A stretch of 52,860 nucleotides of DNA from a virus: IMG/VR virus record IMGVR_UViG_3300044984_001420, positions 1 to 52,860 of that record. One strand, written 5' to 3'. Each line of letters begins with the position of its first letter. Position 1 is the stretch's first letter. The position numbers were made by a program, and so were the translations under genes. This document shows positions 32,745 to 46,135 of the stretch, one piece after another. Below the pieces are notes generated by a model. It was given only the letters and a program-made list of their open reading frames with translations, was not told where the DNA came from and did not search any database.

Positions 32745-33785
32745 GTGCCTAACTTTACGGCAAATACTACGTTGTCTGCTGCCGCTTTAAACACGGCTTT
32801 TAATCAGGCAGATGTAAACGTACAAACATCAACCACTTATACGCTTTTGTTGGCGGATCAAGGGAAACTAATTTCTTTGGATAATGCAAGCGCGGTGACT
32901 TTAAGTATTCCTCTTAACTCTTCAGCCGCTTTTCCAACTAATACGGTGATTGGATTGCTGAATAAGGGTGCTGGATTAGTAACTGTTACTCCTATATCCG
33001 GGGTTACTTTGAATCCTGCCGTGAGGGTTCTTGCACAGAATGAAGCGGCATCTTTAATCAAAACTGACACGAATACTTGGTATTTTGTTCAAGGTGGTGG
33101 CCTCCCAAAAGCAATAGTCTCGTCTAGCACAGCCGCTTCAGTTACAGCGGTGACGGTAGGCGGGCTGCCCGCGAAGGTTTACAAGTTTACTGGTACAGGT
33201 TCAATCACTTTATCAAAGGCTGGTCTTGTGGATGTGATTGCTCAAGGGCCGGGTGGTATAGGTTCATTCGGTTCCGGTGGTGCCGGGGGTTTTATCGAGA
33301 AATCAAACGTGTTTGTTGCTGCTGGTTCTAACGCTGTTTACATTGGTGCGGGTGGAAGCGTTTCGCTGGCTCAAGGGACTGCGGAGTCATCGCACTTTAA
33401 TGGAATTGCTGCAACGGGTGGAGGATCTGGGGCGCAATACACGGACAGGCAACCGTCAGGTGGGGCTTGCGGTGGAGGCTCTGGCCCATTCGCTTCCGCT
33501 AACTCGGGCGTAGGCGCAAGGTTCCAAGGTCTTATTGTTGTTTCGGCTGGCGTGACTCGCGGCGGTAACGGTGCAGGCGTGAACGGTGGCGGGGGTGGTG
33601 GCGTGAACGGTGACGGTTCTGGCGGTACGGGCGGCGCTGGCACTACCCCGGACGCGACTTGGGGTTCACCCGGAACTTTAGGTCGTGGTGGAGGTGGTGC
33701 TTCTATGACGGCTAATACTGGTAACGGTGGCAACTTGGGTGCAAATGGTAATAGCGGAATAATTTTGATAAGGGTGATGGACTAA
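32745..33785 (+). CDS. Tail fibre with glycine-rich C-terminal domain
   Basis: 346 aa, GTG behind GGAGTTGGAG. Residues 1-125 form an N-terminal region (TTYTLLLADQGKLISLDNAS, PLNSSAAFPTNTVIGLLNKG), a fold common at the base of fibres. From about 145 on: VYKFTGTGSITLSKAGLVDV, then alternating Gly-rich loops and strands, ending NGNSGIILIRVMD. The pattern is that of polyglycine-type adhesin tips. Followed immediately by a small partner gene (33785). Confidence 0.75.
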   Translation: MPNFTANTTLSAAALNTAFNQADVNVQTSTTYTLLLADQGKLISLDNASAVTLSIPLNSSAAFPTNTVIGLLNKGAGLVTVTPISGVTLNPAVRVLAQNEAASLIKTDTNTWYFVQGGGLPKAIVSSSTAASVTAVTVGGLPAKVYKFTGTGSITLSKAGLVDVIAQGPGGIGSFGSGGAGGFIEKSNVFVAAGSNAVYIGAGGSVSLAQGTAESSHFNGIAATGGGSGAQYTDRQPSGGACGGGSGPFASANSGVGARFQGLIVVSAGVTRGGNGAGVNGGGGGGVNGDGSGGTGGAGTTPDATWGSPGTLGRGGGGASMTANTGNGGNLGANGNSGIILIRVMD

Positions 33786-34090
33786 TGGCTCATTTTGCAA
33801 AAGTTATTGACGGAATCGTTGAGTCGGTTATTGCGCTCGATAACAAAGACTGCGGGGGTGGGGACTTCCCTGATTCTGAGCCTATCGGCAACGAGTTTCT
33901 TAACGATAACGGGTTTACTGGCGAGTGGTTGCAATGCTCGTATTCAAACTCTTTTAGATATTGGATGCCTGCCCCCGGCTACACATGGAACGGTGAAGCC
34001 TTTGTTTGCCAATCACCGGGCAACGGTTGGACTCTTGACGAGGAAACGTGGCAGTGGGTTTCTGGTTCAGGCTCTCGGATACCAAGTTAA
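33785..34090 (+). CDS. Small fibre-associated protein (MAHFAKV family, copy 1)
   Basis: 101 aa. AHFAKVIDGIVESVIALDNK, then FTGEWLQCSYSNSFRYWMPA and GYTWNGEAFVCQ belong to a small family found next to fibre genes in many phages, including marine and freshwater ones (hallmarks: start AHFAKI, middle G.W.QTSYN, end GYTYD..AF). Probably a tip or assembly protein. A second copy lies at 38248. Confidence 0.7.
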   Translation: MAHFAKVIDGIVESVIALDNKDCGGGDFPDSEPIGNEFLNDNGFTGEWLQCSYSNSFRYWMPAPGYTWNGEAFVCQSPGNGWTLDEETWQWVSGSGSRIPS

Positions 34091-35757: not shown

Positions 35758-36510
35758 ATGGCAATAAACAGTTTCAAGAGGGCAGGTTTAGCAAACACTA
35801 ATACTGCTCAAATAATAAACGCAAACTTTTCTGACACTGCTACTGGAACTTATACCGATACTTACAATTACAAGTATTTGACTTTTAATGCTTCTGGTAC
35901 TTTAACGGTAACAACTGCCGGTAACGCGGATCTACTCGTAATAGCGGGAGGTGGGGGTGGAAACAGCAACGGTAACTTTACTTCCGGTAGTGGTGGTGGA
36001 GGTGGATACGTTGAACAAACAATTTATTTGACCGTGGGAACTTGGACGGTAACCGTTGGTGGTGGAGGTTCTTCCGGTTCTGCTGGTACTGATTCTTTAT
36101 TTGTTGCTGGTACGACTGGGCTTCGTCCGGGTATAGTGGCACGAGGTGGTGGACAAGGTGGAACAGGCGACAGTGGCGGTGGTGGGGGTAATGGTGGAAC
36201 CGGCGCTTCAGGTGGTGGAGCGGGTTACGCGGCTGCAAGCGGAGGAACCGCACTTTATTCTGGTTCTCAAGGATTTAATGGTGGCGCTGTATCTGGATCT
36301 AATCGTGGCGCTGGTGGTGGCGCTGGTGGCGCTGCTTCCGGTGCTACTGCCGGTGTAGGTAAAGCATCTTCAATAACAGGCACAGCGGTAACTCGTGCTG
36401 CTGGTGGCCCCAGTTCTGGTGCAGGAACCGCTAATACTGGAAATGGCGCTGGTGCTGGTACAAATGCTGGTGGTTCTGGCATAGTAATCGTTCGAGTGAG
36501 GACAAACTAA
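35758..36510 (+). CDS. Glycine-rich adhesin-like protein
   Basis: 250 aa. N-terminal about 60 residues include YNYKYLTFNASGTLTVTTAG; from about 65 onward the chain alternates poly-Gly loops (GGGGGN, SGGGGGY) with short strands (LTVGTWTVTVGGGG), ending GGSGIVIVRVRTN. The same C-terminal signature GIVIVR occurs in the genes at 32745 and 36510. Probably packs as polyglycine-II helices at a fibre tip, as described for the S16 gp38 adhesin. Confidence 0.7.
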   Translation: MAINSFKRAGLANTNTAQIINANFSDTATGTYTDTYNYKYLTFNASGTLTVTTAGNADLLVIAGGGGGNSNGNFTSGSGGGGGYVEQTIYLTVGTWTVTVGGGGSSGSAGTDSLFVAGTTGLRPGIVARGGGQGGTGDSGGGGGNGGTGASGGGAGYAAASGGTALYSGSQGFNGGAVSGSNRGAGGGAGGAASGATAGVGKASSITGTAVTRAAGGPSSGAGTANTGNGAGAGTNAGGSGIVIVRVRTN

Positions 36511-38222
36511 TGACTATTACTAAACTTTCAACTGCTCTCGGTGCAGGGTCAGCAATCCCAACAGCGGGTCGTTTCGCACAAATTAGTAGCGGTGGAACTG
36601 TTACGAGTTATACGGATTCTGGTATCACCTATGAAGTGAGGACGTTTACTTCTAGTGGTTCGCTGGTGGTGTCTTCTTCCGGTGTCGTTGATGTTTTGGT
36701 TGTTGCCGCAGGCGCAGGCGGCGGTGGTGGCGCTCGTGGTGGTGGAGGTGGTGCGGGTCAAGCCTTAGTTTTTAACAGTTTGTTTTTGACGGCTGCAACT
36801 CACACTGTAACGATTGGCGCTGGTGGAACTGGTGGAAGTTCAAACAACGTTGGACTTTCCGGGTCGGGTTCTCGTTTAGGTTCTTTAGAATCTTGCGGTG
36901 GTGGTGGTGGTGGTTCTAATTACGTGACAGCAGGCACCATCTCTGCAATGGTTACAAAGGGCAGGGATGGCGGTAACGGTGGCGGTGGCGGTGGTGATGC
37001 TTCTTCAGCCGGTGGCCTAGCGTTAGTTACTTCAGGTTTTGCTGGTGGAACTGCGGCTAACCCTCAAGGTTCCGGCGGTGGCGGTGGCGGAGCAGGCGCT
37101 GTTGGTAGCGCCGGTTCAGGAACAGCCGGTGGTGCTGGCGGCGCTGGGATTTCCTCGTCCATAACTGGTTCTTCAGTTAGTTATGCCGGTGGAGGTGGTG
37201 GCGCGGGTGTTACGACAACTGGTTCTGCTGGCGCTGGCGGGGCTGGTGGCGGTGGTGCTGGAAATATAACTAGCAGCGGAACGGCGGGGTCGGCCAATTT
37301 TGGAGGTGGTGGCGGTGGTGCTGTTGCCACTGGTGGAGCCGGTGGCTCTGGTGTTGTGATCGTCCGAACAATTACTGCCGGTTCAGCAGCGGGTGTAAAT
37401 GCTACTGGTGGAACGGTTACGACTTACACGGGTGATGGTACGAATGGTGTGAACGGTCAGTTGTATCGTGTTCATTCGTTTACTTCGAGTTCTTCGCTTG
37501 TTGTGAGTGGTGCAGGGTTTGTGGACTGCCTCGTTGTTGGTGGCGGTGGTGGCGGTGGAAGCCTTCAAGGTGGGGGCGGTGGCGCTGGTGGTCATTTATA
37601 TTTGACAAACGCTTACTTGGCCGCTGGCACAGCAACAGTTGTGGTGGGTGCTGGAGGCGCTGGAGCAACTGCCGATCTTAGTTTTCAACCGTCTGGTGCT
37701 AATGGCGAAACATCAAGCGTTGGTTCCTATTACGGAGTAGGCGGTGGTGGCGGGGGTGGTGGTATAGGTGGCGCTGGAAGTCGCGGCAAAGGTTTTGCCG
37801 GTGGGTCTGGTGGCGGTAGCGGTAGCCCTGTTGTAGCCACAGGAGGTTCAGGCATATCAAATCAAGGAAACACTGGTGGGACATCAAACAGCAGCGTGGG
37901 TGGCGGTGGAGGTGGAGCCGGTGCGGTTGGAAGTAATGGCGCAGCAAGCGTAGGTGGTGCTGGTGGTGCAGGTCTAGCCAATCTCATCACAGGAACTAGC
38001 GTGACTCGTGCTGGTGGTGGTGGTGGAGGTTTATCTGCTGGAACAGCGGGTGCGGGTGGAACTGGTGGCGGTGGTGCGGGAACGACAAACAACACCACAG
38101 CAACCTCGGCAACTGCAAACACTGGTGGCGGTGGCGGTGGTGGTGGCTACACATCACCCGGTGCTGGTGGTTCTGGCGGCGCAGGCGGTTCCGGCATAGT
38201 AATCGTTCGCTATCCAATCTAA
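36510..38222 (+). CDS. Large glycine-rich adhesin-like protein, internally duplicated
   Basis: 570 aa. Contains two similar units: the first (about 30-295) starts TSYTDSGITYEVRTFTSSGS and ends GGSGVVIVRTITAG; the second (about 300-570) starts TTYTGDGTNGVNGQLYRVHS and ends GGSGIVIVRYPI. Within each unit Gly-rich loops alternate with hydrophobic strands. The DNA is full of GGTGGC-type repeats, so recombination and length change are likely. Predicted receptor-binding tip. Confidence 0.7.
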   Translation: MTITKLSTALGAGSAIPTAGRFAQISSGGTVTSYTDSGITYEVRTFTSSGSLVVSSSGVVDVLVVAAGAGGGGGARGGGGGAGQALVFNSLFLTAATHTVTIGAGGTGGSSNNVGLSGSGSRLGSLESCGGGGGGSNYVTAGTISAMVTKGRDGGNGGGGGGDASSAGGLALVTSGFAGGTAANPQGSGGGGGGAGAVGSAGSGTAGGAGGAGISSSITGSSVSYAGGGGGAGVTTTGSAGAGGAGGGGAGNITSSGTAGSANFGGGGGGAVATGGAGGSGVVIVRTITAGSAAGVNATGGTVTTYTGDGTNGVNGQLYRVHSFTSSSSLVVSGAGFVDCLVVGGGGGGGSLQGGGGGAGGHLYLTNAYLAAGTATVVVGAGGAGATADLSFQPSGANGETSSVGSYYGVGGGGGGGGIGGAGSRGKGFAGGSGGGSGSPVVATGGSGISNQGNTGGTSNSSVGGGGGGAGAVGSNGAASVGGAGGAGLANLITGTSVTRAGGGGGGLSAGTAGAGGTGGGGAGTTNNTTATSATANTGGGGGGGGYTSPGAGGSGGAGGSGIVIVRYPI

Positions 38223-38247
38223 AACAAATAACGAGAGGAAAACAATA

Positions 38248-38499
38248 ATGGCACATGCAGCAAGAATTGAAGATGGAATTGTTCGGGAAGTAATCGTTGT
38301 TCCTGATGATTTGGATGCAACTGAATCGGATGCAGCGATTGAGGCGTACATTCACGGTATTGGTTTGAGCGGTACTTGGATTCGTACGAGTTACAACGCT
38401 ACTAATGGTTTCCGTGGGTGCTATGCGGGGATCGGTTACGCTTATGATAGCGAAGCAGATGTGTTTGTTCCGCCCGTGGTTGAGGTAGTAGAAGCATAA
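38248..38499 (+). CDS. Small fibre-associated protein (MAHFAKV family, copy 2)
   Basis: 83 aa behind GAGAGGA. AHAARIEDGIVREVIVVPDD, LSGTWIRTSYNATNGFRGCY and GIGYAYDSEADVF match the protein at 33785 and the family hallmark GxWxxTSYN...GxGYxYD. Each of the two copies follows a glycine-rich adhesin gene, suggesting that they work as partners (tip cap or chaperone). Confidence 0.75.
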   Translation: MAHAARIEDGIVREVIVVPDDLDATESDAAIEAYIHGIGLSGTWIRTSYNATNGFRGCYAGIGYAYDSEADVFVPPVVEVVEA

Positions 38500-38701
38500 C
38501 CGGTCGGAACAATACCTTTTTCAGTATAGTTGTGCCCGACAAAAGTCGCATTGAAGCACTGACAAAAGTCGCATAGACGGGGCATAAACCCTGTTTATGT
38601 GCGCTATCGTATCCCTTAAATACGTTTAAGCACACAAACATTCTTATGTGACCATGTAATCTACATTTAAGGTTTACGATTTACATGGAAGAGGGGCATG
38701 A
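38500..38701 (+). other. Non-coding repeat-rich spacer with alternative hairpins
   Basis: No gene seen. GACAAAAGTCGCAT occurs at 38538-38551 and 38561-38574 (23-bp period). CATAAAC (38583-38589) can pair with GTTTATG (38593-38599), but GTTTATGTGC (38593-38602) can instead pair, with one mismatch, with GCACACAAAC (38630-38639), enclosing CTTAAA/TTTAAG (38615-38620, 38625-38630). CCATGTAA/TTACATGG (38652-38659, 38681-38688) follows just before the next gene. A/T-rich. Possible attenuator, protein-binding or origin region between fibre and glycan genes. Confidence 0.6.
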
Positions 38702-39379
38702 ATGAGGATTGCACTTGTCACGGCTTGTTTCGGTTCGTATGATCCGATTCGGGCTTTGCCTGCTGATCATGGTTTCGATGACGCGGTACTTGTGACTAAT
38801 GACCGATCTTTCGCAACAGATACGGTATCGCGTATCGGGTGGCGGGTTCATCTGGAGAGTCCTAAGGAGTCGCCAAGGTTGGCGGCTAAGCGACCGAAGA
38901 TGATGCCGTGGCTTTATACGGATTGTGATGCGGCGGTGTGGTTGGATGCTTCGTTTGAGATTATTGGGGTGGGCTTTCGTAATTGGGTTGAGGATCATTT
39001 GACCCGAAATGATTTCGTGGTGTGGGCTCACCCGGAGGGGAGGATTTGTATCCGTCAGGAGGCTGATGTGTGTTGGGACTTCCCGAAGTACAAGGGCCAG
39101 CCTATCCGGGAGCAGGTAAATGCTTACGGGCTTGAAGGATTCCCGGGGTTTTGGGGGCTTTTTGCGGCGGGAACTGTCGGGTACAGGTTTACTGACGAGG
39201 CTAAGCGTTTCGGGGCTCTGTGGCACGCTGAGAACGTTAAATGGAGTGTTCAGGATCAAATCTCCTTGCCGTATCTTTTGTGGCGTGAGGGTAAGCCTTT
39301 CGGTTTGTGGGCTGGCAATGAGTACGCGAATCCGTATGTTCGAGTCCGGTGGGATCAGCGGCCTAATAATGCGTTGTGA
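38702..39379 (+). CDS. Glycosyltransferase-like protein (TOD1/DUF616 type)
   Basis: 225 aa, RBS AGAGGGG. IALVTACFGSYDPIRALPAD at the start, VTNDR, then KMMPWLYTDCDAAVWLDASF (D82) as in the DUF616/TOD1-MUCI70 glycosyltransferase-like family, in which WLDAS is the DxD equivalent. The C-terminal half has aromatic-rich FPGFWGLFAAGTVGYRFTDE. Donor and acceptor unknown. Its 3' end overlaps the antisense epimerase gene by 25 nt. Confidence 0.7.
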   Translation: MRIALVTACFGSYDPIRALPADHGFDDAVLVTNDRSFATDTVSRIGWRVHLESPKESPRLAAKRPKMMPWLYTDCDAAVWLDASFEIIGVGFRNWVEDHLTRNDFVVWAHPEGRICIRQEADVCWDFPKYKGQPIREQVNAYGLEGFPGFWGLFAAGTVGYRFTDEAKRFGALWHAENVKWSVQDQISLPYLLWREGKPFGLWAGNEYANPYVRVRWDQRPNNAL

Positions 39380-40041
39380 ATGTGTTCGTGTAGCCTGATT
39401 TTTGGTTCCCATTCGGGCAGTCGTTCTAAAGGGTAGACAAGTTCGGCGTCAGGGTATCCGACGAACTCAGGGACTTTTAAGCCGTATCTGGCGGCTATAT
39501 CTAATGGGCTGGATGATTTACCCCACCCCGCCATGTAGACACCTCTGGGACTGTCTAATGCAACCAAACAGGCGGCTGCCACATCTTTCACATGAATGAA
39601 GTCTCGTGGTTCTTTCGATAGCCCGATTAAGGGTTCCCCTGTTTTAATGGACTGAATTATTTGGGGGATGATTCCTCTACCCACCCGTGCTCCGTCACCA
39701 TAAATTGAGTAGGGAATGATGTGGACTGCGCTGAACATTCTTGTCTGCCGCTCTTTTAATTTTGTGTAAAGCACTTCACGACAGTTGCCTTCGGAGATTT
39801 GCCACCATGAACCGACAATAACAATTCTCTGTAATTTTGATTCTGTCAGATATTTCTGGATTTCTTGGTTAAATTCTTCGAATTGAATTACTGTACTATC
39901 GTCACGATAATTGGGTGCTGCCGCATGAATGAGTCCGGTTAATTCAATATCTGGCATTGTTCGCCCAATCGGGTAGGCATCCGGGATGAGATCCATTAAG
40001 GCTTGCCCTAGATGTCCTGATGCACCCGTTACCCCGATCAT
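39355..40041 (-). CDS. NAD-dependent epimerase/dehydratase (SDR)
   Basis: 228 aa. Nucleotide-binding GVTGASGHLGQALMDL (GxxGxxG at 4-10), then LIHAAAPNYRD, RIVIVGSWWQISEGN in place of the usual SxxxxY region, HIIPYSIYGDGARVGRG, FIHVKDVAAACLVAL. The YxxxK pair is represented by VLYTKLKE, so catalysis seems possible. Extended SDRs convert nucleotide sugars such as dTDP- or GDP-sugars. Last gene of the three-gene - strand group, overlapping the previous one by ATGA. Confidence 0.8.
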   Translation of the reverse strand: MIGVTGASGHLGQALMDLIPDAYPIGRTMPDIELTGLIHAAAPNYRDDSTVIQFEEFNQEIQKYLTESKLQRIVIVGSWWQISEGNCREVLYTKLKERQTRMFSAVHIIPYSIYGDGARVGRGIIPQIIQSIKTGEPLIGLSKEPRDFIHVKDVAAACLVALDSPRGVYMAGWGKSSSPLDIAARYGLKVPEFVGYPDAELVYPLERLPEWEPKIRLHEHIHNALLGR

Positions 40042-40757
40042 TGCAGGGACTCAATAAAGCGATAAGACTCTTCATGACAATCATGGAGGGTTGCTGGATC
40101 TGTTTCTCGGAGCAGACGGGTGAGGCTTTTTCTTTCGTCTTGCAGGTCGTCTAGGTGGCAAAGTATTTCAGGTGTGTAGGCCATAAGTTCAGGGTGTGCA
40201 GCGACCGTGGCGTAGTTGATTAACACGTTAGGTCCGACCCCTGATTCAAAGGCTTGCGGGGATAAGTGACGCATAAGCGACCATGATTCAACAAGGGCAT
40301 CTCGGCGTATGAGTGCCGTCACGGGGCTGACGGAGAGGATTCCTTGACGCACGGCTTGCGGTATTGGAATGTCAGGTGTCCACGAGTTGTAAACAGGTTG
40401 GCCTGTCCATGCAAAGGTTGACCCGCATTGTGACACCAAAGTGGTATCGCTTGCGATACTCAGGAGTCGTTCGCAACATTCGGGTTCAAGCCAATCATCA
40501 TCAAAAACATATTTGATCCAATCCCCTTTGGATGCCATGAAACCAAGCATCCAGTTCCATGTGATGTTGACTTTTTTATCCGACCTAAGATAAGTGATGC
40601 GCTCGTCCGTTAATGAAAGAACATATTCCATTGTTCCATCATTCGAGTTATTATCGGACACGATTATTTCAACGGGCACGGTCTGTTGAAGGCATGAATG
40701 TAAGGCTCTTTTAAATGCTTCACCCCTGTTATGAGTGGGGATTATGCAAGAGATCAT
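40038..40757 (-). CDS. GT2-family glycosyltransferase
   Basis: 239 aa from the ATG at 40757, which overlaps the stop of the upstream gene (ATGA); a longer reading begins at 40784. ISCIIPTHNRGEAFKRALHS, VEIIVSDNNSNDGT (UDP-sugar site) and YVFDDDWLEPECCE (D86-D88 as DxD) define a GT-A inverting family 2 enzyme. No membrane segment. Probably transfers a sugar to a glycan or virion protein. Confidence 0.88.
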   Translation of the reverse strand: MISCIIPTHNRGEAFKRALHSCLQQTVPVEIIVSDNNSNDGTMEYVLSLTDERITYLRSDKKVNITWNWMLGFMASKGDWIKYVFDDDWLEPECCERLLSIASDTTLVSQCGSTFAWTGQPVYNSWTPDIPIPQAVRQGILSVSPVTALIRRDALVESWSLMRHLSPQAFESGVGPNVLINYATVAAHPELMAYTPEILCHLDDLQDERKSLTRLLRETDPATLHDCHEESYRFIESLQ

Positions 40758-41398
40758 TTCATGCTCTTTACGATTTCGGCCCAATGTTGCTCATCTACGC
40801 CGTTGCTGATGTTGTGATCTGCGAGGTTGTAATAATAGTCGCTGCGTCCGGTGGGTATAAAACGTGCTTTTTGTTTTGCACACCCAATCCAGAAAACCCA
40901 ATCCTCAAAGATCATATCCTCAAACTTATTGTTTTCCCACAATGTTTTTCTAAATGGGGAGCCAGAAAAGATCAAATTGTGTTCCGACTCAAGAATCGTC
41001 TCGTGAGTAAAGGATGTTGGTAGCAGGCTTTGTGTTTGTCCGTCCCTGTCCAGCGTTATACCGAACATAATTACATCTGCCTCAGTTGACAAATCGTTGA
41101 AGGCGTGAGGGTAGATGCGGTCGTCGGCATCCATTTTGCAGATCCATTCCGTTTTACATTCAGCAATTGCTTCATTAACGAGAACTTGAGGGTGATGCTT
41201 CCAAGTCGTGTCGGATTGAATGACCGTTCCCTCTATGTTGAGTTTGCTTGTCGCTTCGGCTATGTGATCATCGAGACGGTCTGTAACAATGCAATAAAAG
41301 TCGGGTGCGGTTTCGAGTTGGGATACCGATTGCGCCCAATTGGGTAAAAAGGCGCGATAAGTGTCCCCGTGAGCCACTGTCACGATTCCGACGTTCAT
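40754..41398 (-). CDS. GT2-like glycosyltransferase
   Basis: 214 aa. VGIVTVAHGDTYRAFLPNWA, VLVNEAIAECKTEWICKMDADDR (D90-A-D92 metal site), then SGSPFRKTLWENNKFEDMIF and EDWVFWIGCAKQ; the acceptor region has the ED of the GT2 general base. First gene of the - strand group. The sequence before its ATG, AATACT then 6 nt, nearly repeats the leaderless geometry seen elsewhere. Confidence 0.8.
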   Translation of the reverse strand: MNVGIVTVAHGDTYRAFLPNWAQSVSQLETAPDFYCIVTDRLDDHIAEATSKLNIEGTVIQSDTTWKHHPQVLVNEAIAECKTEWICKMDADDRIYPHAFNDLSTEADVIMFGITLDRDGQTQSLLPTSFTHETILESEHNLIFSGSPFRKTLWENNKFEDMIFEDWVFWIGCAKQKARFIPTGRSDYYYNLADHNISNGVDEQHWAEIVKSMK

Positions 41399-41440
41399 AA
41401 GGGTAGTATTTCACGGAAGCCAACTTTTTAGGGGATCTGC

Positions 41441-42493
41441 GTGCCAAGTGCCGGTTTTATTTCCACGGATTTTGCTACCACTGTGGATCCACCTGTCCCA
41501 AATGGGTGTACTTGGTATCGAATGGTGCTGCCTTCCCGTCAATTGAGTGCTTTGGGGTGGGATATCGCAGTTGGTTTGCCTCGCGTCCATCCCGAGAAGG
41601 GTTTTGGTGTTGCTCATGAGGATGGAGCCTTTTTTGGTTGGGATGTTAATGTTTTTAAGTTACTGATGCACGAGTCAACATCCGAGATTTTTAAAATCAT
41701 GCAGCAAAATGGAGATAAAATTATTGTTGACGTGGATGATTTTCATTTTGGTATTCATGAAGAAAATATTGCTGCAAGCAAAACGCACCCTAATTTGAAC
41801 ACGGAAAACAACCGCATGTTTTTTGAAATGGGTATCAGGCAAGCCAACACTGTCACGGTGTCCACCCAATTTTTGGCTAATTTTTATGAGAGACGTTGTC
41901 GAGATGTCCGTATCGTGCGTAACGCTGTTGATGTCGAGCGCTTCACAATACAACCTCAACCTGAAACCCCTATTTTTGGTTGGGTAGGCGGGACCATGTG
42001 GCGCTCAGGTGACATAGAATTATTGTCACAGTGGCTTCCTAGTTTCGTGGAAGATTTTGATGTGCAAGTTCACCACTCAGGTCACATACCAAATGATTCT
42101 CGACATTTTGCTGTCCGCGCTGGGTTAAAAAAAGTAACCACTGTGCTTATGAGTCCCGTTCCTGACTACCCCAAATTATTGAATCATTTTCATGTCGGGC
42201 TTGTGCCTTTGACAAGAAATCTTTTTAATGAGGCTAAAAGTAATCTTAAAGGGCTTGAATATGCTGCAGCAGGGATTCCCTTTATTGCTACTCCCACGGA
42301 GGAATACAGGCTTCTTCATGAGGCAGGGGTTGGAAGGTTGGCTACTTCTCCTGACGAATGGCGGGATCATGCCATTGCTTTATTGGATCCTGCGATACGA
42401 CAATTTGAGGCTAAAAAAAATTGGGAGATTGTTAATGCTGAATTTAATATGGCTACGAAAGGAAACGAATGGGCTTCCGCACTACTTGGTTAG
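41441..42493 (+). CDS. GT4-like (GT-B) glycosyltransferase
   Basis: 350 aa, GTG start, divergent from the - strand group across 42 bp. YRMVLPSRQLSALGWDIAVG, IIVDVDDFHFGIHEENIAAS, ANTVTVSTQFLANFYERRCR and VRIVRNAVDVERF (the NGVD-type GT-B segment), FGWVGGTMWRSGDIELLSQW, then FNEAKSNLKGLEYAAAGIPF with the E-x7-E donor-binding pattern (EAKSNLKGLE). Retaining transferase of family 4 by pattern. No RBS evident upstream; TAGGGG lies 12 nt before the start. Confidence 0.85.
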   Translation: MPSAGFISTDFATTVDPPVPNGCTWYRMVLPSRQLSALGWDIAVGLPRVHPEKGFGVAHEDGAFFGWDVNVFKLLMHESTSEIFKIMQQNGDKIIVDVDDFHFGIHEENIAASKTHPNLNTENNRMFFEMGIRQANTVTVSTQFLANFYERRCRDVRIVRNAVDVERFTIQPQPETPIFGWVGGTMWRSGDIELLSQWLPSFVEDFDVQVHHSGHIPNDSRHFAVRAGLKKVTTVLMSPVPDYPKLLNHFHVGLVPLTRNLFNEAKSNLKGLEYAAAGIPFIATPTEEYRLLHEAGVGRLATSPDEWRDHAIALLDPAIRQFEAKKNWEIVNAEFNMATKGNEWASALLG

Positions 42494-43074
42494 AGCATGA
42501 GGGTTTCTTGTCTGTTCACACTGAAGATTTTCTTCATGCCATTGATCGTATAATTCCAGAAAAACCGATTGATATTTTACTTCTTGGGGTTGGCAACGGT
42601 GGAGACATAGAGGTTTGGAAAAAAACATTGCCTGAAGGTTCTAGCGTTACGGCTGTAGACGATAAGGCTTTAACTTCTGACCTTAATCTTCAAGTTATTG
42701 TTGCTGATTTAAACAATAAAAGCCTGATGCGAAGTTTTCTTTTTGGATCTTGGTTTCATGTGATCATTGATGCTACTGGAACTTTCATGCCTCATGTTTG
42801 GCCGTTTCTCCGAGCGGGGGGAGTTTTCGTCGTAGAGAACTATCAACACGATATTTTAACGAAACTAGTTCGCGACCTTGCAGAAGATAATGACTCTGTT
42901 TTACCCACGGAAGAAATAATGTTTATGTCTGTCTTTCCTAATGTCGTTAGTCTTGAGAAAAGAAATCCTAGAGTTGTTCCTTACCTCGCAATTATTACAG
43001 GTAAGAATGATCCCGTTGTTAAAGAAAAAATTTATCAGGAACAAGGAGCAAAAAGAGTGGTTGTCCAATCATAA
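42469..43074 (+). CDS. SAM-dependent methyltransferase (class I)
   Basis: 201 aa, overlapping the GT4 gene by 25 nt. Motif I IDILLLGVGNGGDIEVWKKT, an acidic end of strand 2 (VTAVDDKA), IVADLNN, FHVIIDATGTFMPHVWPFLR and AGGVFVVENYQHD represent the Rossmann methyltransferase series. Similar enzymes methylate sugars (for example O-methylation caps) in glycan clusters, and its place in the cassette supports that over a DNA methyltransferase; no DPPY/PC motif is present. Confidence 0.8.
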   Translation: MGFRTTWLEHEGFLSVHTEDFLHAIDRIIPEKPIDILLLGVGNGGDIEVWKKTLPEGSSVTAVDDKALTSDLNLQVIVADLNNKSLMRSFLFGSWFHVIIDATGTFMPHVWPFLRAGGVFVVENYQHDILTKLVRDLAEDNDSVLPTEEIMFMSVFPNVVSLEKRNPRVVPYLAIITGKNDPVVKEKIYQEQGAKRVVVQS

Positions 43075-43176
43075 ACTACCCTTTAGTCATCTGGAGGTGG
43101 CAAAATAGGGGTACTTGACTTGCAATTATGGCAACTCAAGGGGCTTTGCTTCCCATCCCTACTTCGAAAGTAAATT

Positions 43177-43536
43177 ATGCCGATTCAAGACATCTTGGCT
43201 TTTGCCGTTGGAGGCATCGCCATCCTTACTTTTATGGGTCTTGTTCATAAAATGTTTTTAAACAAAATTTTTGTAGAGTTCAGAGAAGCGCTTTTATGGT
43301 TCCGTAAGTTTCAAAGGGATTGGGACGGCGAGGATGCAAGCCCCGGGAGAGACTCCGTACCGGGGGTTATGGAGCGCCTCAACAGGATTGATGGGGAGTT
43401 AAAGCGCAACGGTGGCTCGACCTTGAAGGATAAAGTTTTTGAGACATGGGAAAAAGTTGAGAATCTTGATGAACGGGTTGATTCAATAGAGGCAACGCAA
43501 TTGGCGATACAAAAGTCTATTCAAAAGGATAAATAG
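43177..43536 (+). CDS. Membrane-anchored coiled-coil protein (lysis cassette)
   Basis: 119 aa. One N-terminal transmembrane helix (about 5-28, ILAFAVGGIAILTFMGLVHK), then FRKFQRDWDGEDASPGRDSV, GVMERLNRIDGELKRNGGST and a coiled coil to the end. This arrangement is common in actinophage lysis regions, where it may be a second holin/antiholin or spanin-like helper. The 100-nt gap before it holds TTGACT (43115-43120) but no clear -10. Confidence 0.7.
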   Translation: MPIQDILAFAVGGIAILTFMGLVHKMFLNKIFVEFREALLWFRKFQRDWDGEDASPGRDSVPGVMERLNRIDGELKRNGGSTLKDKVFETWEKVENLDERVDSIEATQLAIQKSIQKDK

Positions 43537-43540
43537 GGGT

Positions 43541-43552
43541 TAGACTCCAACA
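43541..43552 (+). promoter_or_regulatory. Leaderless-type promoter of the 43553 gene
   Basis: TAGACT (43541-43546), 6 nt (CCAACA), ATG 43553. AGGGG further upstream is too far (about 10 nt or more) to be the natural RBS for this start. Confidence 0.55.
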
Positions 43553-43867
43553 ATGGATAAAAAACCGTTAGTAAAAAAGACTGTCGCTGCAGACCCCGTT
43601 CCAACGGTTCGACGCTCAATTTTGTCGCTGGAATTGAAGCATCCTTTGGCTCAAGGAGATATTGGTGGTCAGGTGCATAAAGCACAGGATGCACTTTCAA
43701 AACTTGGCTTCGATGATTTTAAAGTCAATGGACGTTTCGGCTCAGTAATGAGTAAGGCAGTTCGTCGTTTTCAGGAATCACGAGGTTTAAGAATCACGGG
43801 AGAAATTGATTCCCGGACGTGGGAGTCTTTGTTTCAACCCGATTCAAAAACAAAAATAAAGGAGTAA
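43553..43867 (+). CDS. Free-standing peptidoglycan-binding protein
   Basis: 104 aa. Residues about 30-100 are a PG_binding_1 domain: GQVHKAQDALSKLGF, FKVNGRFGSVMSKAVRRFQE, RGLRITGEIDSRTWESLF. N-terminus is basic (KKPLVKKTVA). The amidase two genes downstream lacks an evident wall-binding domain, so this protein could be its separate targeting subunit, or a wall-binding virion part. Confidence 0.8.
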   Translation: MDKKPLVKKTVAADPVPTVRRSILSLELKHPLAQGDIGGQVHKAQDALSKLGFDDFKVNGRFGSVMSKAVRRFQESRGLRITGEIDSRTWESLFQPDSKTKIKE

Positions 43868-43869
43868 TT

Positions 43870-44073
43870 ATGCCCGCAATTCCTGCTGTTTGGAGAAAAT
43901 GGCTTTACGTCGTTGGTATTGCTTTTGTTCCCGTTACTCAGGCTTTTGGTTGGATTGATGACAATAAAGCCATTGCTATAACCGGCCTTGTCTATGCCGT
44001 ATTTATGGGGGGATTGGCTGCCGCTAATGTGCAGACGGTTCCCGTTGATCAGTTTCAGGAGGCCGCAGAGTGA
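43870..44073 (+). CDS. Holin
   Basis: 67 aa from ATG 43870 behind GGAG. Two transmembrane helices (WLYVVGIAFVPVTQAFGWI and AIAITGLVYAVFMGGLAAAN) with the short loop DDNK, preceded by KW and followed by an acidic tail; this is the usual two-span actinophage holin. It forms the lesion that releases the amidase. Overlaps the amidase start (GTGA). Confidence 0.82.
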   Translation: MPAIPAVWRKWLYVVGIAFVPVTQAFGWIDDNKAIAITGLVYAVFMGGLAAANVQTVPVDQFQEAAE

Positions 44074-44723
44074 AGGTTTCACCACAGCGTCTTGAAAATC
44101 ATTTGAAGAAATGGAAAATTGATTACAATTTGGTGAAGGGCTGGGATTCCCCGAGCATTGATCCTTACAAGGGAAACAGTGTTTTTTCTGGGGTTTTGTT
44201 GCATCATACTGCCGGGACCAACAGCGAGCATTACATTTGTTTCACGAATCCTTATGCTCCCGTTCGGGCGGCACACTTCCTCGTGAATCGTGATGGTTCT
44301 GTTTCAGTGTGTTCGGGTTCTGGTGCTTATCATGCTGGGCTCGGTGGTCCTTGGACTTTTACTAAAACGGTGACCGTGCCGAAGGATCAAGGGAACTCGC
44401 GTCTTTACGGTATTGAGATTGAATCTTTGGGCACCAGTGCCACGATCAGTGGAACGCAAAAGGGAATGACTTTAGAGCAAGTTATATCTACCGCTACCTT
44501 GTCGGTGGCCTTGCTTGATGCAATGGTCAAAGGTCCGTTGATGTTGGGCGTCGAGCGGGTAATTCGTCACCGCGATTGGACCACGAGGAAGCCCGACGTT
44601 AAACAAGATTTGGACTGGTGGCGACAGGTCATAAATTTGGCTCGCAAGGCCAAGGGTGATCCGGCTTTAACTCGGACGTTGATCACGGAATATGTAAATC
44701 GATACCCCAAGGGAAAAATTTAA
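44070..44723 (+). CDS. N-acetylmuramoyl-L-alanine amidase (endolysin)
   Basis: 217 aa, GTG start. Amidase_2 fold: VLLHHTAGT (H45 first Zn ligand), AAHFLVNRDGSVSVCS, GAYHAG, YGIEIES (E116), and VIRHRDWTTRKPDVKQD (H167 second ligand, D176 third). Cleaves the amide bond between N-acetylmuramic acid and the stem peptide. The last 30 residues are helical and basic and do not resemble a known binding domain. Ends the lysis cassette directly before a terminator. Confidence 0.92.
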   Translation: MKVSPQRLENHLKKWKIDYNLVKGWDSPSIDPYKGNSVFSGVLLHHTAGTNSEHYICFTNPYAPVRAAHFLVNRDGSVSVCSGSGAYHAGLGGPWTFTKTVTVPKDQGNSRLYGIEIESLGTSATISGTQKGMTLEQVISTATLSVALLDAMVKGPLMLGVERVIRHRDWTTRKPDVKQDLDWWRQVINLARKAKGDPALTRTLITEYVNRYPKGKI

Positions 44724-44739
44724 TCTCAAGAGACGAAAT

Positions 44740-44763
44740 CCCCCTCACGGGGGTTTTTGTTTT
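44740..44763 (+). terminator. Rho-independent terminator after the lysis genes
   Basis: CCCCC (44740-44744), loop TCAC, GGGGG (44749-44753), then TTTTTGTTTTT. Ends the late transcript. Confidence 0.92.
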
Positions 44764-44768
44764 TGGGG

Positions 44769-44808
44769 GCGGAGGAGCGCCGTAAGACCCCAAACAACGC
44801 TCCTCCGC
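44769..44808. repeat. Perfect 11-bp inverted repeat next to the terminator
   Basis: GCGGAGGAGCG (44769-44779) and CGCTCCTCCGC (44798-44808) with an 18-nt loop. No T-run on either side. May be a second transcription stop, an RNA stability or protein-binding element at the border between late genes and the replication arm. Apart from this and the promoter, 44809-44940 shows nothing. Confidence 0.75.
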
Positions 44809-44877
44809 GTGGCATCGGAGACTCTAGGGGAGAGGATGAGTCATCGACGATGTTACAGATATTGTGTCATAACTTGG

Positions 44878-44913
44878 ACCCCCTCAACACAGGACTAAAG
44901 GGGGGTGTATGAT
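44878..44913 (+). promoter_or_regulatory. Promoter P7 of the replication arm
   Basis: ACCCCC...ACTAAA then GGGGGGTG and TATGAT (44908-44913), resembling P1 in its C-run/ACTAA/G-run layout. RBS AAGGAGAGG precedes ATG 44943. Confidence 0.6.
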
Positions 44914-44942
44914 TCATACAACCCCAAGCAAGGAGAGGCGCA

Positions 44943-45500
44943 ATGAGCGAAAATATTAATGACTACGATGATGACGGTGAAACAGTAGTAAGAGACATGC
45001 TGCGTTTCACAGTTAAAGATGACGCGGAAGCGTCATGGGCCATGAGAAAACTCCTCAACATAAAATCGAAAATGTTGGAAAACGAGGAGATGGCAAAAGC
45101 CGAGCGAGCAAGAATTGACAATTGGTTGGTTCGAGTTAACGGCAGATTTGAAACAGAGGTTTCATATTTCGAGGCCATACTCACGCAATATGCTCGGACG
45201 CAAAGACAAAATGAAGGTCGTAAAACCATTGATACTCCTTACGGAACTGTCAAGTCGCGAGCAACACACTCAAAATTCAAGGTAGAGAACGTAGAAGAAT
45301 TTCTACAGTGGGCTAGTATCAACGCCCCAGAACTGGTCAACATCAAAACAAGCCCGAACCTTGCGGCTTTGAAAGATTTTGCCAGCATAGAAGAAACACA
45401 AACCCTCGGATCAGTAGCCATGACAATTGATGGGGAAATTATTCCCGGTGTCATTGTGGATCCGGCTGACATCAATTTCACTGTGGAGGTGGCATCATGA
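44943..45500 (+). CDS. Gam-like / Gp157-type host-nuclease inhibitor
   Basis: 185 aa. Long central helix region (LLNIKSKMLENEEMAKAERA, RIDNWLVRVNGRFETEVSYF) followed by GRKTIDTPYGTVKSRATHSK and VENVEEFLQWAS, the order of Mu Gam/Gp157-type proteins, which bind dsDNA ends and protect them from RecBCD/AddAB. The following gene encodes an annealing protein, the usual company. Confidence 0.7.
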   Translation: MSENINDYDDDGETVVRDMLRFTVKDDAEASWAMRKLLNIKSKMLENEEMAKAERARIDNWLVRVNGRFETEVSYFEAILTQYARTQRQNEGRKTIDTPYGTVKSRATHSKFKVENVEEFLQWASINAPELVNIKTSPNLAALKDFASIEETQTLGSVAMTIDGEIIPGVIVDPADINFTVEVAS

Positions 45501-46135
45501 GTTTGACTCAAGAACAAGTAAAAGAATTACTCAAGCCAATTGACCCTGCCCGGGTAAGTAAGGACGGGAAAGGCTTTTCGCACGTTGAAGCGTGGGATAT
45601 CCGCCGGACCATGAATCAGATTTTTGGGTTCGGTAACTGGTCGTCTGATGTTCATCGCATGGAACTCGTTGCTGAGCGCGAGGTTCAAAGCAAAGATGGA
45701 AAGACACGATGGAACGTGATTTATCGTGCTCAATGCTCTTTGCGTATTGGCGAGATATTTGGCGACACTTCCTCGTATACGGAGTGGGCGGCTGGAGATG
45801 CCACCAACCCAACTCTTGCCGATGCTCATGATCAGGCAATTAAGACAGCCGAATCACAGGCGTTCAAGCGTTGCGCTGTGAACCTTGGCGATCAATTTGG
45901 TTTATCTCTGTACAAGAACGGATCGACTGTTGCATCGGTTGGCGAGATTGTTGGTCAGGAACATGAGCATGCTGCCAATGTAGCCACTTGGGTTACGGAT
46001 TTGCTGAACGCTGAAACCGAAGAGGCTTTGGCTGAGGTGGTGTCCCAGATCCGTGGTGCAGATATTTCCTCGCGTGATCGCGCAATCTTGACGCAAGGAT
46101 ACAAGAGGGCTCAAGCACGAGTTAATCCTTCATGA
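45497..46135 (+). CDS. Rad52-family single-strand annealing protein
   Basis: 212 aa. LLKPIDPARVSKDGKGFSHV, WDIRRTMNQIFGFGNWSSDV, TEWAAGDATNPTLADAHDQA and KTAESQAFKRCAVNLGDQFG are the characteristic Rad52/Rad22 N-terminal blocks. These rings anneal complementary ssDNA during phage recombination. The C-terminal about 50 residues are helical (TDLLNAETEEALAEVVSQI). Coupled to the Gam-like gene by ATGA and to the initiator gene after it. Confidence 0.88.
   Translation: MSLTQEQVKELLKPIDPARVSKDGKGFSHVEAWDIRRTMNQIFGFGNWSSDVHRMELVAEREVQSKDGKTRWNVIYRAQCSLRIGEIFGDTSSYTEWAAGDATNPTLADAHDQAIKTAESQAFKRCAVNLGDQFGLSLYKNGSTVASVGEIVGQEHEHAANVATWVTDLLNAETEEALAEVVSQIRGADISSRDRAILTQGYKRAQARVNPS

What the first reader, a model, noticed from the sequence alone, without database searches (positions are those of the whole stretch)
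38702..43074. Glycan cassette with an inverted three-gene core
Four glycosyltransferase-like genes, an SDR epimerase and a methyltransferase lie together, and three are the only complete - strand genes in the window. They follow directly on the Ser/Thr/Gly-rich fibres. Some actinophages glycosylate capsid and tail proteins; this set could build a capped glycan on the fibres or tube, or alter the host surface.
Basis: partly seen in the sequence, partly recalled or inferred. Interest (0 to 1): 0.5.

Follow-up and report, generated by a model that had tools for sequence, protein, structure and literature searches.

The report
Swappable phage sugar-coating gene cassette
An uncultured virus, probably of actinobacteria, carries next to its tail-fibre genes six genes that look able to build and cap a sugar chain, and related viruses swap the backward-facing middle genes like interchangeable parts, so the virus may be varying its own sugar coat.

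Summary
Six genes (38702-43074) encode four glycosyltransferase-like proteins, a short SDR and a methyltransferase; the middle three run backwards. The methyltransferase best matches, by fold and profile, the macrolide sugar O-methyltransferases MycE and SpnK; the first gene (T1) has a GT-A fold.

Relatives explain the inversion. Of 15 distinct tail/lysis-slot loci found with T1 as bait (window included), 12 have backward glycosyltransferase genes after T1, 2 only a backward peptidoglycan-binding gene, and 1 none, T1 lying 26 bp from the next glycosyltransferase. Identity jumps gene by gene. So the core is a replaceable module. No inverted repeats sit at its edges.

In another phage group T1 relatives lie, forward, between major capsid and connector genes, the slot where mycobacteriophage Constella keeps its glycosyltransferases, one a C3 relative. 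With no membrane protein in the cassette and no thymidylate-synthase or C5-methylase match in the record, virion-protein glycosylation is the best reading (about 0.65). Acceptor, sugar and glycan are not shown. I rate it a new variant of a known kind; the exchangeable, convergent core is the interesting part.

The parts
36510..38222 (+). Gly-rich fibre-like tail protein (570 aa), upstream neighbour and possible acceptor
   Evidence: PF21722 Gly_rich_2 E 2.6e-27; phrog_2295 E 4.6e-81; S+T+G 57%; same family upstream of T1 in 7 of 7 relatives tested
38248..38499 (+). small conserved protein (83 aa) between fibre and cassette; family recurs upstream of T1 in relatives
   Evidence: phrog_7759 E 2.3e-16; cluster c11, 9 members
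38702..39379 (+). T1: GT-A-fold glycosyltransferase, first gene of the cassette (the bait for the slot comparison)
   Evidence: PF04765; AlphaFold2 pLDDT 86.5; BoGT6a Z 13.0, glycogenin 12.6, GlyE 12.4; 54-65% to the other tail/lysis-slot loci
39355..40041 (-). C1: short SDR (228 aa), last gene of the minus core; overlaps the T1 3' end by 25 nt
   Evidence: PF01370 E 5.7e-11; TGxxGxxG and YxxxK readable and shared with L014; 49-50% to L014/L015, 30% over 77 residues to the longer SDR of L016
40038..40784 (-). C2: GT2-family glycosyltransferase with DDD motif, found only in the window among the loci compared
   Evidence: PF00535 E 6.5e-23; no relative found in viral contigs; singleton cluster; chondroitin and heparosan synthase matches in the PDB
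40754..41398 (-). C3: glycosyltransferase of phrog_9549, first gene of the minus core
   Evidence: phrog_9549 E 4.2e-27; 31.6% to Constella gp13, 29% to Tweety gp104; 57% to L016
41399..41440 (.). 42-bp divergent gap between C3 and T2; no sigma-70-like site found here
   Evidence: coordinates
41441..42493 (+). T2: GT4-type glycosyltransferase
   Evidence: PF13692 E 3.6e-7; phrog_7162 E 6.4e-36; relatives in the tail/lysis slot and between head and tail genes
42469..43074 (+). T3: MycE/SpnK-like sugar O-methyltransferase, overlapping the T2 3' end by 25 nt
   Evidence: follows T2 in relatives

Best explanation
A glycan-building cassette of an uncultured actinophage that most likely decorates the phage's own virion proteins. 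Inferred working: C1 makes or alters a nucleotide sugar from host stock; T1, C2, C3 and T2 add sugars one after another to Ser/Thr (or another side chain) of a structural protein, whether tail fibre, tail tube or capsid; T3 puts an O-methyl cap on a sugar. Shown: gene content, predicted folds of T1 and T3, and that T1 and T2-T3 flank the core in the window and in its relatives L010 and L014, while the convergent minus-strand core is absent, shorter or different in relatives and recombines gene by gene. Inferred: substrate, acceptor, sugar order, and that core exchange changes the glycan type. The reverse orientation belongs to the exchanged module at this site; nothing points to a switch. A separate promoter for the core is needed and was not found.
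For: (1) Families and folds. (2) Slot comparison: T1 is followed by a minus-strand gene in 14 of 15 distinct tail/lysis-slot loci and by a plus-strand gene in all 8 distinct capsid-side loci where the T1 ORF was called (near-copies merged). Core states: SDR+GT2+GT9549 (window); SDR+GT9549-like (L014); GT32-like+SDR+GT9549 (10 loci); PG-binding only (L012, L013); none (L010, 26-bp gap). Another core gene, a Methyltransf_23 protein, lies beside T2 in L047. (3) Mosaic: L011/L021 T1 69% but C3-family 99%; L022/L037 T1 84% against 94-98% for the three core enzymes. In the window C3 is sister to L016 (98/95), while C1's near match is L014. (4) Virion link: capsid-side L017 runs MCP (phrog_10, PF05065) - GT4 - unknown - T1 - methyltransferase - unknown - GT - connector; Constella carries genes 10-18, five of them annotated GT, between MCP and head-to-tail adaptor, one a C3 relative; T2-T3 also lie among head/tail genes in L006 and L049-L053 (the tail-tube label rests). 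(5) In print: capsid glycosylation in Che8 and Corndog needs phage GTs (passages of PMC12363180; PMC11256854).
Against: No glycan has been seen. T1's presence in all 15 loci is partly built in, since T1 was the bait; L072, found with T2, has fibre genes like the window's (three of four at 70-88%, one at 41%) followed by lysis genes with no T1, C1-C3 or T3 match, so the cassette is dispensable. No cassette protein matches Che8 gp108-110 by BLASTP (best E 0.53). MCP and tail-tube proteins show no Ser/Thr tail extension compared with relatives without an annotated GT. Two of seven T3 homologues lack the SAM-loop region, and in T3 the aspartates next to MycE's metal site are A102 and N124 (alignment; MycE's metal ligands are recalled), so catalysis is not assured. 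Composition does not mark the core as foreign. No promoter for the core was found; the promoter scan as a whole found fewer sites than shuffles give (7 against 10.2).
Confidence: 0.65

Rival explanations
1. Host-surface modification: the enzymes alter a cell-envelope glycan of the infected host to block superinfection or prevent released virions from sticking.
For: Weak matches, all far below cut-off, of C2, C3 and T2 to bacterial envelope or protein-glycan transferases (TuaG, PglI, TuaH). Weak GtrB-like PHROG matches of C2 (E 0.00066 and 0.0011). Such a role has been suggested for GTs of Nanopelagicales phages (passage of PMC10202952).
Against: No membrane segment in any of the six proteins, so no flippase or polyprenyl-phosphate GT of Gtr type. 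No tyrosine or serine integrase match in the window, so long-term conversion is less likely. T1 and T2 relatives sit among structural genes.
Confidence: 0.2
2. DNA hypermodification: the transferases glycosylate modified bases in the phage genome.
For: A role proposed in print for Nanopelagicales phage GTs (passage of PMC10202952).
Against: No thymidylate-synthase (PF00303) or C5-cytosine methylase (PF00145) match in the record; these searches rang in 9 and 10 of 14 control genomes. The Tet_JBP search rang nowhere and is inconclusive. The genes lie with fibre and lysis genes, and a sugar O-methyltransferase fits protein glycans better. The record may be incomplete.
Confidence: 0.07
3. Decayed or passenger genes: the core is a selfish or neutral insert with no glycan made.
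For: The core is absent in L010 and the whole cassette in L072; T3 homologues L049 and L052 have lost the SAM loop; no core promoter found.
Against: All six window frames are open and full length, and C1 keeps its TGxxGxxG and YxxxK motifs. T1 has 53 invariant columns in 9 aligned homologues. The core families recur with the same order and strand in 10 loci.
Confidence: 0.08

Closest known systems
Virion glycosylation in mycobacteriophages Che8 (cluster F) and Corndog (cluster O)
   Same: Phage-coded glycosyltransferases in an actinobacterial phage; glycan on capsid and tail tube reported (passages in PMC12363180; PMC11256854; PMC12619734; the original paper is not held).
   Different: No meaningful BLASTP match of the six proteins to Che8 gp108-110 (best E 0.53); Corndog could not be compared. 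Here the cassette lies between fibres and lysis genes with a reversed core and carries an SDR.
Capsid-side glycosyltransferase block of mycobacteriophage Constella (genes 10-18; cluster J, name recalled) and the kinase-methyltransferase-GT trio of Tweety (102-104)
   Same: C3 is a relative of Constella gp13 (31.6%) and Tweety gp104 (29%); Constella's block holds the slot used by the capsid-side relatives of T1.
   Different: All plus strand; no T1, T2 or T3 match to the compared proteins below E 0.39.
MycE and SpnK, macrolide sugar O-methyltransferases
   Same: T3 fold and profile match.
   Different: T3 is much shorter (201 aa against 397-419 in the PDB chains) and aligns to their C-terminal part only; the metal-site aspartates are partly replaced.
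Gtr seroconversion cassettes of temperate phages (features recalled)
   Same: Phage-borne sugar-transfer genes.
   Different: No flippase-like or other membrane protein.

Membership tests
Phage virion-protein glycosylation cassette | Phage codes its own glycosyltransferases | tested here: met
   Four GT-like proteins; T1 fold
Phage virion-protein glycosylation cassette | GT families recur inside virion structural gene blocks | tested here: met
   T1 family and C3 family between MCP and connector genes; T2-T3 among head/tail genes
Phage virion-protein glycosylation cassette | Glycan covalently on a virion protein | not testable with these tools
   Needs virion mass spectrometry
Che8 gp110 / Corndog gp38 GT family | Sequence relation to Che8 gp110 | tested here: not met
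   BLASTP at E <= 1 of the six proteins against Che8 gp108-110: best E 0.53, and that for the SDR. Corndog record not held
MycE/SpnK-type sugar O-methyltransferases | Fold and closest profile match | tested here: met
   MycE Z 16.8, rmsd 2.7, 156 residues; SpnK 16.5; next TrmR 13.8 and MycF 13.5; MycE E 1.1e-5, SpnK E 0.063 by profile
MycE/SpnK-type sugar O-methyltransferases | Mg-binding acidic residues | tested here: inconclusive
   E123 invariant in A4, but A102 and N124 stand where MycE has aspartates; ligand identity recalled
GT6/GT8-like GT-A glycosyltransferases (T1) | GT-A fold with GT6/GT8 enzymes as best matches | tested here: inconclusive
   Z 13.0, rmsd 3.7, 198 residues to BoGT6a, but glycogenin, GlyE and LARGE1 rows lie within 1 Z; CAZy family names recalled
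Gtr serotype-conversion cassette | Membrane flippase and membrane GT | tested here: not met
   Highest 19-residue hydropathy mean in the six proteins 1.17, against 1.96 and 2.16 in the small downstream proteins p84 and p119
DNA-hypermodification GT system | Enzyme making a modifiable base | tested here: inconclusive
   No PF00303 or PF00145 match, but Tet_JBP rang nowhere and the record may be incomplete

The most novel reading that the evidence does not exclude
The slot is a phage counterpart of a bacterial O-antigen locus: a fixed address beside the fibre genes where uncultured actinophages swap reversed glycan modules, gene by gene, together with sugar O-methyltransferases, sulfotransferases and 2OG-Fe(II) hydroxylases, so that closely related phages carry different, chemically capped virion glycans ('glycotypes').
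Probability: 0.3. Interest if true: 0.7.

Novelty: new variant of a known kind. Interest (0 to 1): 0.5.

Why it matters
Virion glycosylation is known from a few cultured mycobacteriophages. If it holds here, uncultured phages carry a locus that varies the sugar coat at one site, with a reversed module as the unit of exchange. That gives a direct way to ask what phage glycans are for (adsorption, protection from proteases, grazers or receptors), by comparing relatives that differ in the core.

Tried and rejected
Phase-variable inversion: no inverted repeat has its arms at the core's edges; of the 15 short pairs found, three (I3, I12, I13; 12-19 nt, 84-92%) enclose the core at a distance inside coding sequence and look like chance. 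Recent foreign origin by composition: only T3 is unusual (GC z -2.9). Close DNA relatives among phage isolates: none by megablast of 36000-46000. The nearest isolates by MCP and terminase include Arthrobacter phages Ottawa, Kharcho, Kovu and Shrooms and Microbacterium phage ValentiniPuff; in the parts of Ottawa, Shrooms and ValentiniPuff that I read no GT is annotated. Viral relatives of C1, C2 and C3 as single queries: none; these scans need exact peptide words, and C1 and C3 relatives turned up in loci fetched with T1 and T2. Cellular homologues: T1 and C3 alignments found none in genome contigs, with the same limit. PDB by sequence for T1: none at E 0.1. Sulfotransferase in L014 (3495-4193): suspected from a P-loop-like stretch, not supported by PHROGs, Pfam, PDB or BLAST against the sulfotransferases of other loci. 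Acceptor search by Ser/Thr C-terminal extension: nothing. Literature: eight searches; their listings showed no description of this exchangeable reversed cassette; most subscription journals are not held.
Full report
OBSERVATION. The window is a 52,860-base IMG/VR record classed as linear. It is an actinophage-like tailed phage: a WhiB-like gene (phrog_472), MCP nearest to Arthrobacter phages Ottawa and Kharcho (61%) and terminase nearest to Arthrobacter phage Kovu (54%). The six genes of the finding are real and sit where stated. Family searches give T1 TOD1/MUCI70-like, C1 Epimerase, C2 GT2, T2 GT4-type and C3 phrog_9549 glycosyltransferase. T3 had no Pfam match. The five other minus-strand ORFs of the greedy set (70 aa or more; the ORF antisense to T1 set aside) match no PHROG at E 0.01, so C1-C3 are the only supported minus-strand genes. 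Codon usage could not separate them.

FOLDS. The AlphaFold2 model of T3 (pLDDT 77.7, 7 sequences) matches MycE (Z 16.8, rmsd 2.7, 156 residues) and SpnK (16.5), both macrolide sugar O-methyltransferases; the next rows are TrmR at 13.8 and MycF at 13.5. A profile of T3 also picks MycE from the PDB by sequence (E 1.1e-5). Two of seven T3 homologues lack the SAM-loop region, so not every copy can be active. T1 (pLDDT 86.5) has a GT-A fold. BoGT6a and alpha-1,3-galactosyltransferase (Z about 13) are tied with glycogenin and GlyE, so the exact GT family is open.

THE SLOT. The T1 alignment scan listed 31 loci; L019, a 100% identical fragment that carries the window's own genes, was left out. With the window that makes 32 records in the map. 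I merged copies at 99.6% DNA identity or more and the two ends of one contig (L022 and L038). That leaves 15 distinct loci that I place in the tail/lysis slot (window, L008, L010, L011, L012, L013, L014, L016, L020, L021, L022, L024, L025, L026, L037), 9 with T1 on the capsid side (L017, L018, L027, L028, L030, L031, L032, L033, L034), and L039, which fits neither. L012 and L013 are 94-96% alike and counted as two. The slot assignment rests on: a phrog_2295 fibre-type protein upstream of T1 in all 7 relatives tested (L008, L014, L016, L021, L025, L026, L037), BLAST matches to window fibre or lysis genes in L010, L012 and L013, an endolysin-type gene downstream in L011 (phrog_880), and shared gene clusters for the rest. 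The gene after T1 is on the minus strand in 14 of 15, overlapping or within 187 bp. Twelve of 15 hold minus-strand glycosyltransferases; L012 and L013 only a minus-strand gene of the PG-binding cluster; L010 has none, T1 and T2 being 26 bp apart. Core make-up: window SDR+GT2+GT9549; L014 SDR+GT9549-like; 10 loci GT32-like (PF04488 in L016) + longer SDR + GT9549 (Pfam and PHROGs were run on the L016 proteins only, the rest assigned by BLASTP clustering; GT32 is a recalled name). A different core gene, a Methyltransf_23 protein, lies minus-strand beside T2 in L047, where the contig ends.

A BIAS TO STATE. T1 was the bait, so its presence in the 15 loci is partly built in. Among loci fetched with T2, L072 has fibre genes like the window's (three of four at 70-88% identity, one at 41%), then lysis genes, and no match to T1, C1-C3, T3 or the two other core families. 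Five further T2 loci near a lysin-like gene (L061, L066, L067, L070, L071) also have none. So the whole cassette is optional.

MOSAIC. Among ten of the loci, identity changes gene by gene: L011/L021 T1 69%, GT32-like 93%, SDR 78%, GT9549 99%; L021/L022 T1 96%, GT32-like 84%, SDR 72%, GT9549 69%; L022/L037 T1 84%, core enzymes 94-98%. In the window, C3 is sister to L016 (98/95), a locus without a T2 or T3 match, while C1's near match is L014 and T2 groups with L004, L047 and L014 (92/91). The exchanged unit can thus be a single gene or the block. The C3 tree carries a long-branch warning.

LINK TO THE VIRION. On the capsid side T1 is on the plus strand: the next gene is plus in all 8 distinct loci where the T1 ORF was called, L027 not being called. 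L017 reads MCP (phrog_10, PF05065) - GT4 - unknown - T1 - methyltransferase - further ORF - GT - connector (only L017 was scanned with PHROGs and Pfam for this gene order); a GT9549 gene follows T1 in L028 and L031. The MCP cluster is present in 8 of the 9 loci, L028 being the exception. Mycobacteriophage Constella has genes 10-18 between MCP and head-to-tail adaptor, five of them annotated glycosyltransferase, with gp13 31.6% identical to C3. T2-T3 also sit between an exonuclease-type gene and tail-tube genes in L006 and L052; the window's tail-tube genes match PHROG major tail proteins and Ottawa's. Capsid and tail-tube glycosylation by phage GTs is described for Che8 and Corndog; I read passages in papers citing the original work, the original being not held.

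RIVALS. Gtr-type surface conversion lacks its membrane parts, and no integrase family matched. DNA modification lacks PF00303 and PF00145 matches, with Tet_JBP inconclusive. Decay is possible for some copies, but the window's frames are open and C1's motifs intact.

WHAT IS NOT SHOWN. Acceptor, sugar, product and promoter. The MCP and tail-tube C-termini do not differ in Ser/Thr from relatives without an annotated GT (by eye). The fibres are the neighbours, not proven acceptors.

VERDICT. A real, probably functional glycan cassette, most likely for virion proteins; the convergent core is an exchangeable module. New variant of a known kind.

Noticed in passing
L011, L020, L021, L037, L038 upstream of T1 (for example L037:2506-3066): 2OG-Fe(II) oxygenase genes (PF13640 in L037; phrog_61 in L037 and L020; others by cluster) lie just upstream of T1 in 5 of the 15 tail/lysis loci; hydroxylation before glycosylation is possible. 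PF13640 had no match in the window.
   Followed up: partly
L021:3791-4615, also L024/L023 and L038: Sulfotransferase (PF13469, PF00685 in L021; others by cluster) upstream of T1 in 3 of the 15 tail/lysis loci, suggesting sulfated glycans.
   Followed up: partly
L049:7371-7844 and L052:7042-7521: Short T3 homologues that lack the SAM-binding loop and middle region yet keep the C-terminal EKR-PR signature; perhaps pseudo-enzymes with another role.
   Followed up: no
window 43553-43867 against L016:12979-13278: The PG-binding-type gene is plus strand downstream of T3 in the window but the first gene of the minus-strand operon in the L016-type loci.
   Followed up: no
window 33785-34090 and 38248-38499: Two related small proteins (32% identical) each sit next to a fibre gene; the family recurs beside fibres in relatives, possibly a fibre chaperone or tip.
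   Followed up: no
L072:3206-6215: A cassette-free version of the slot: fibre genes like the window's run into small lysis-type genes and an endolysin.
   Followed up: partly
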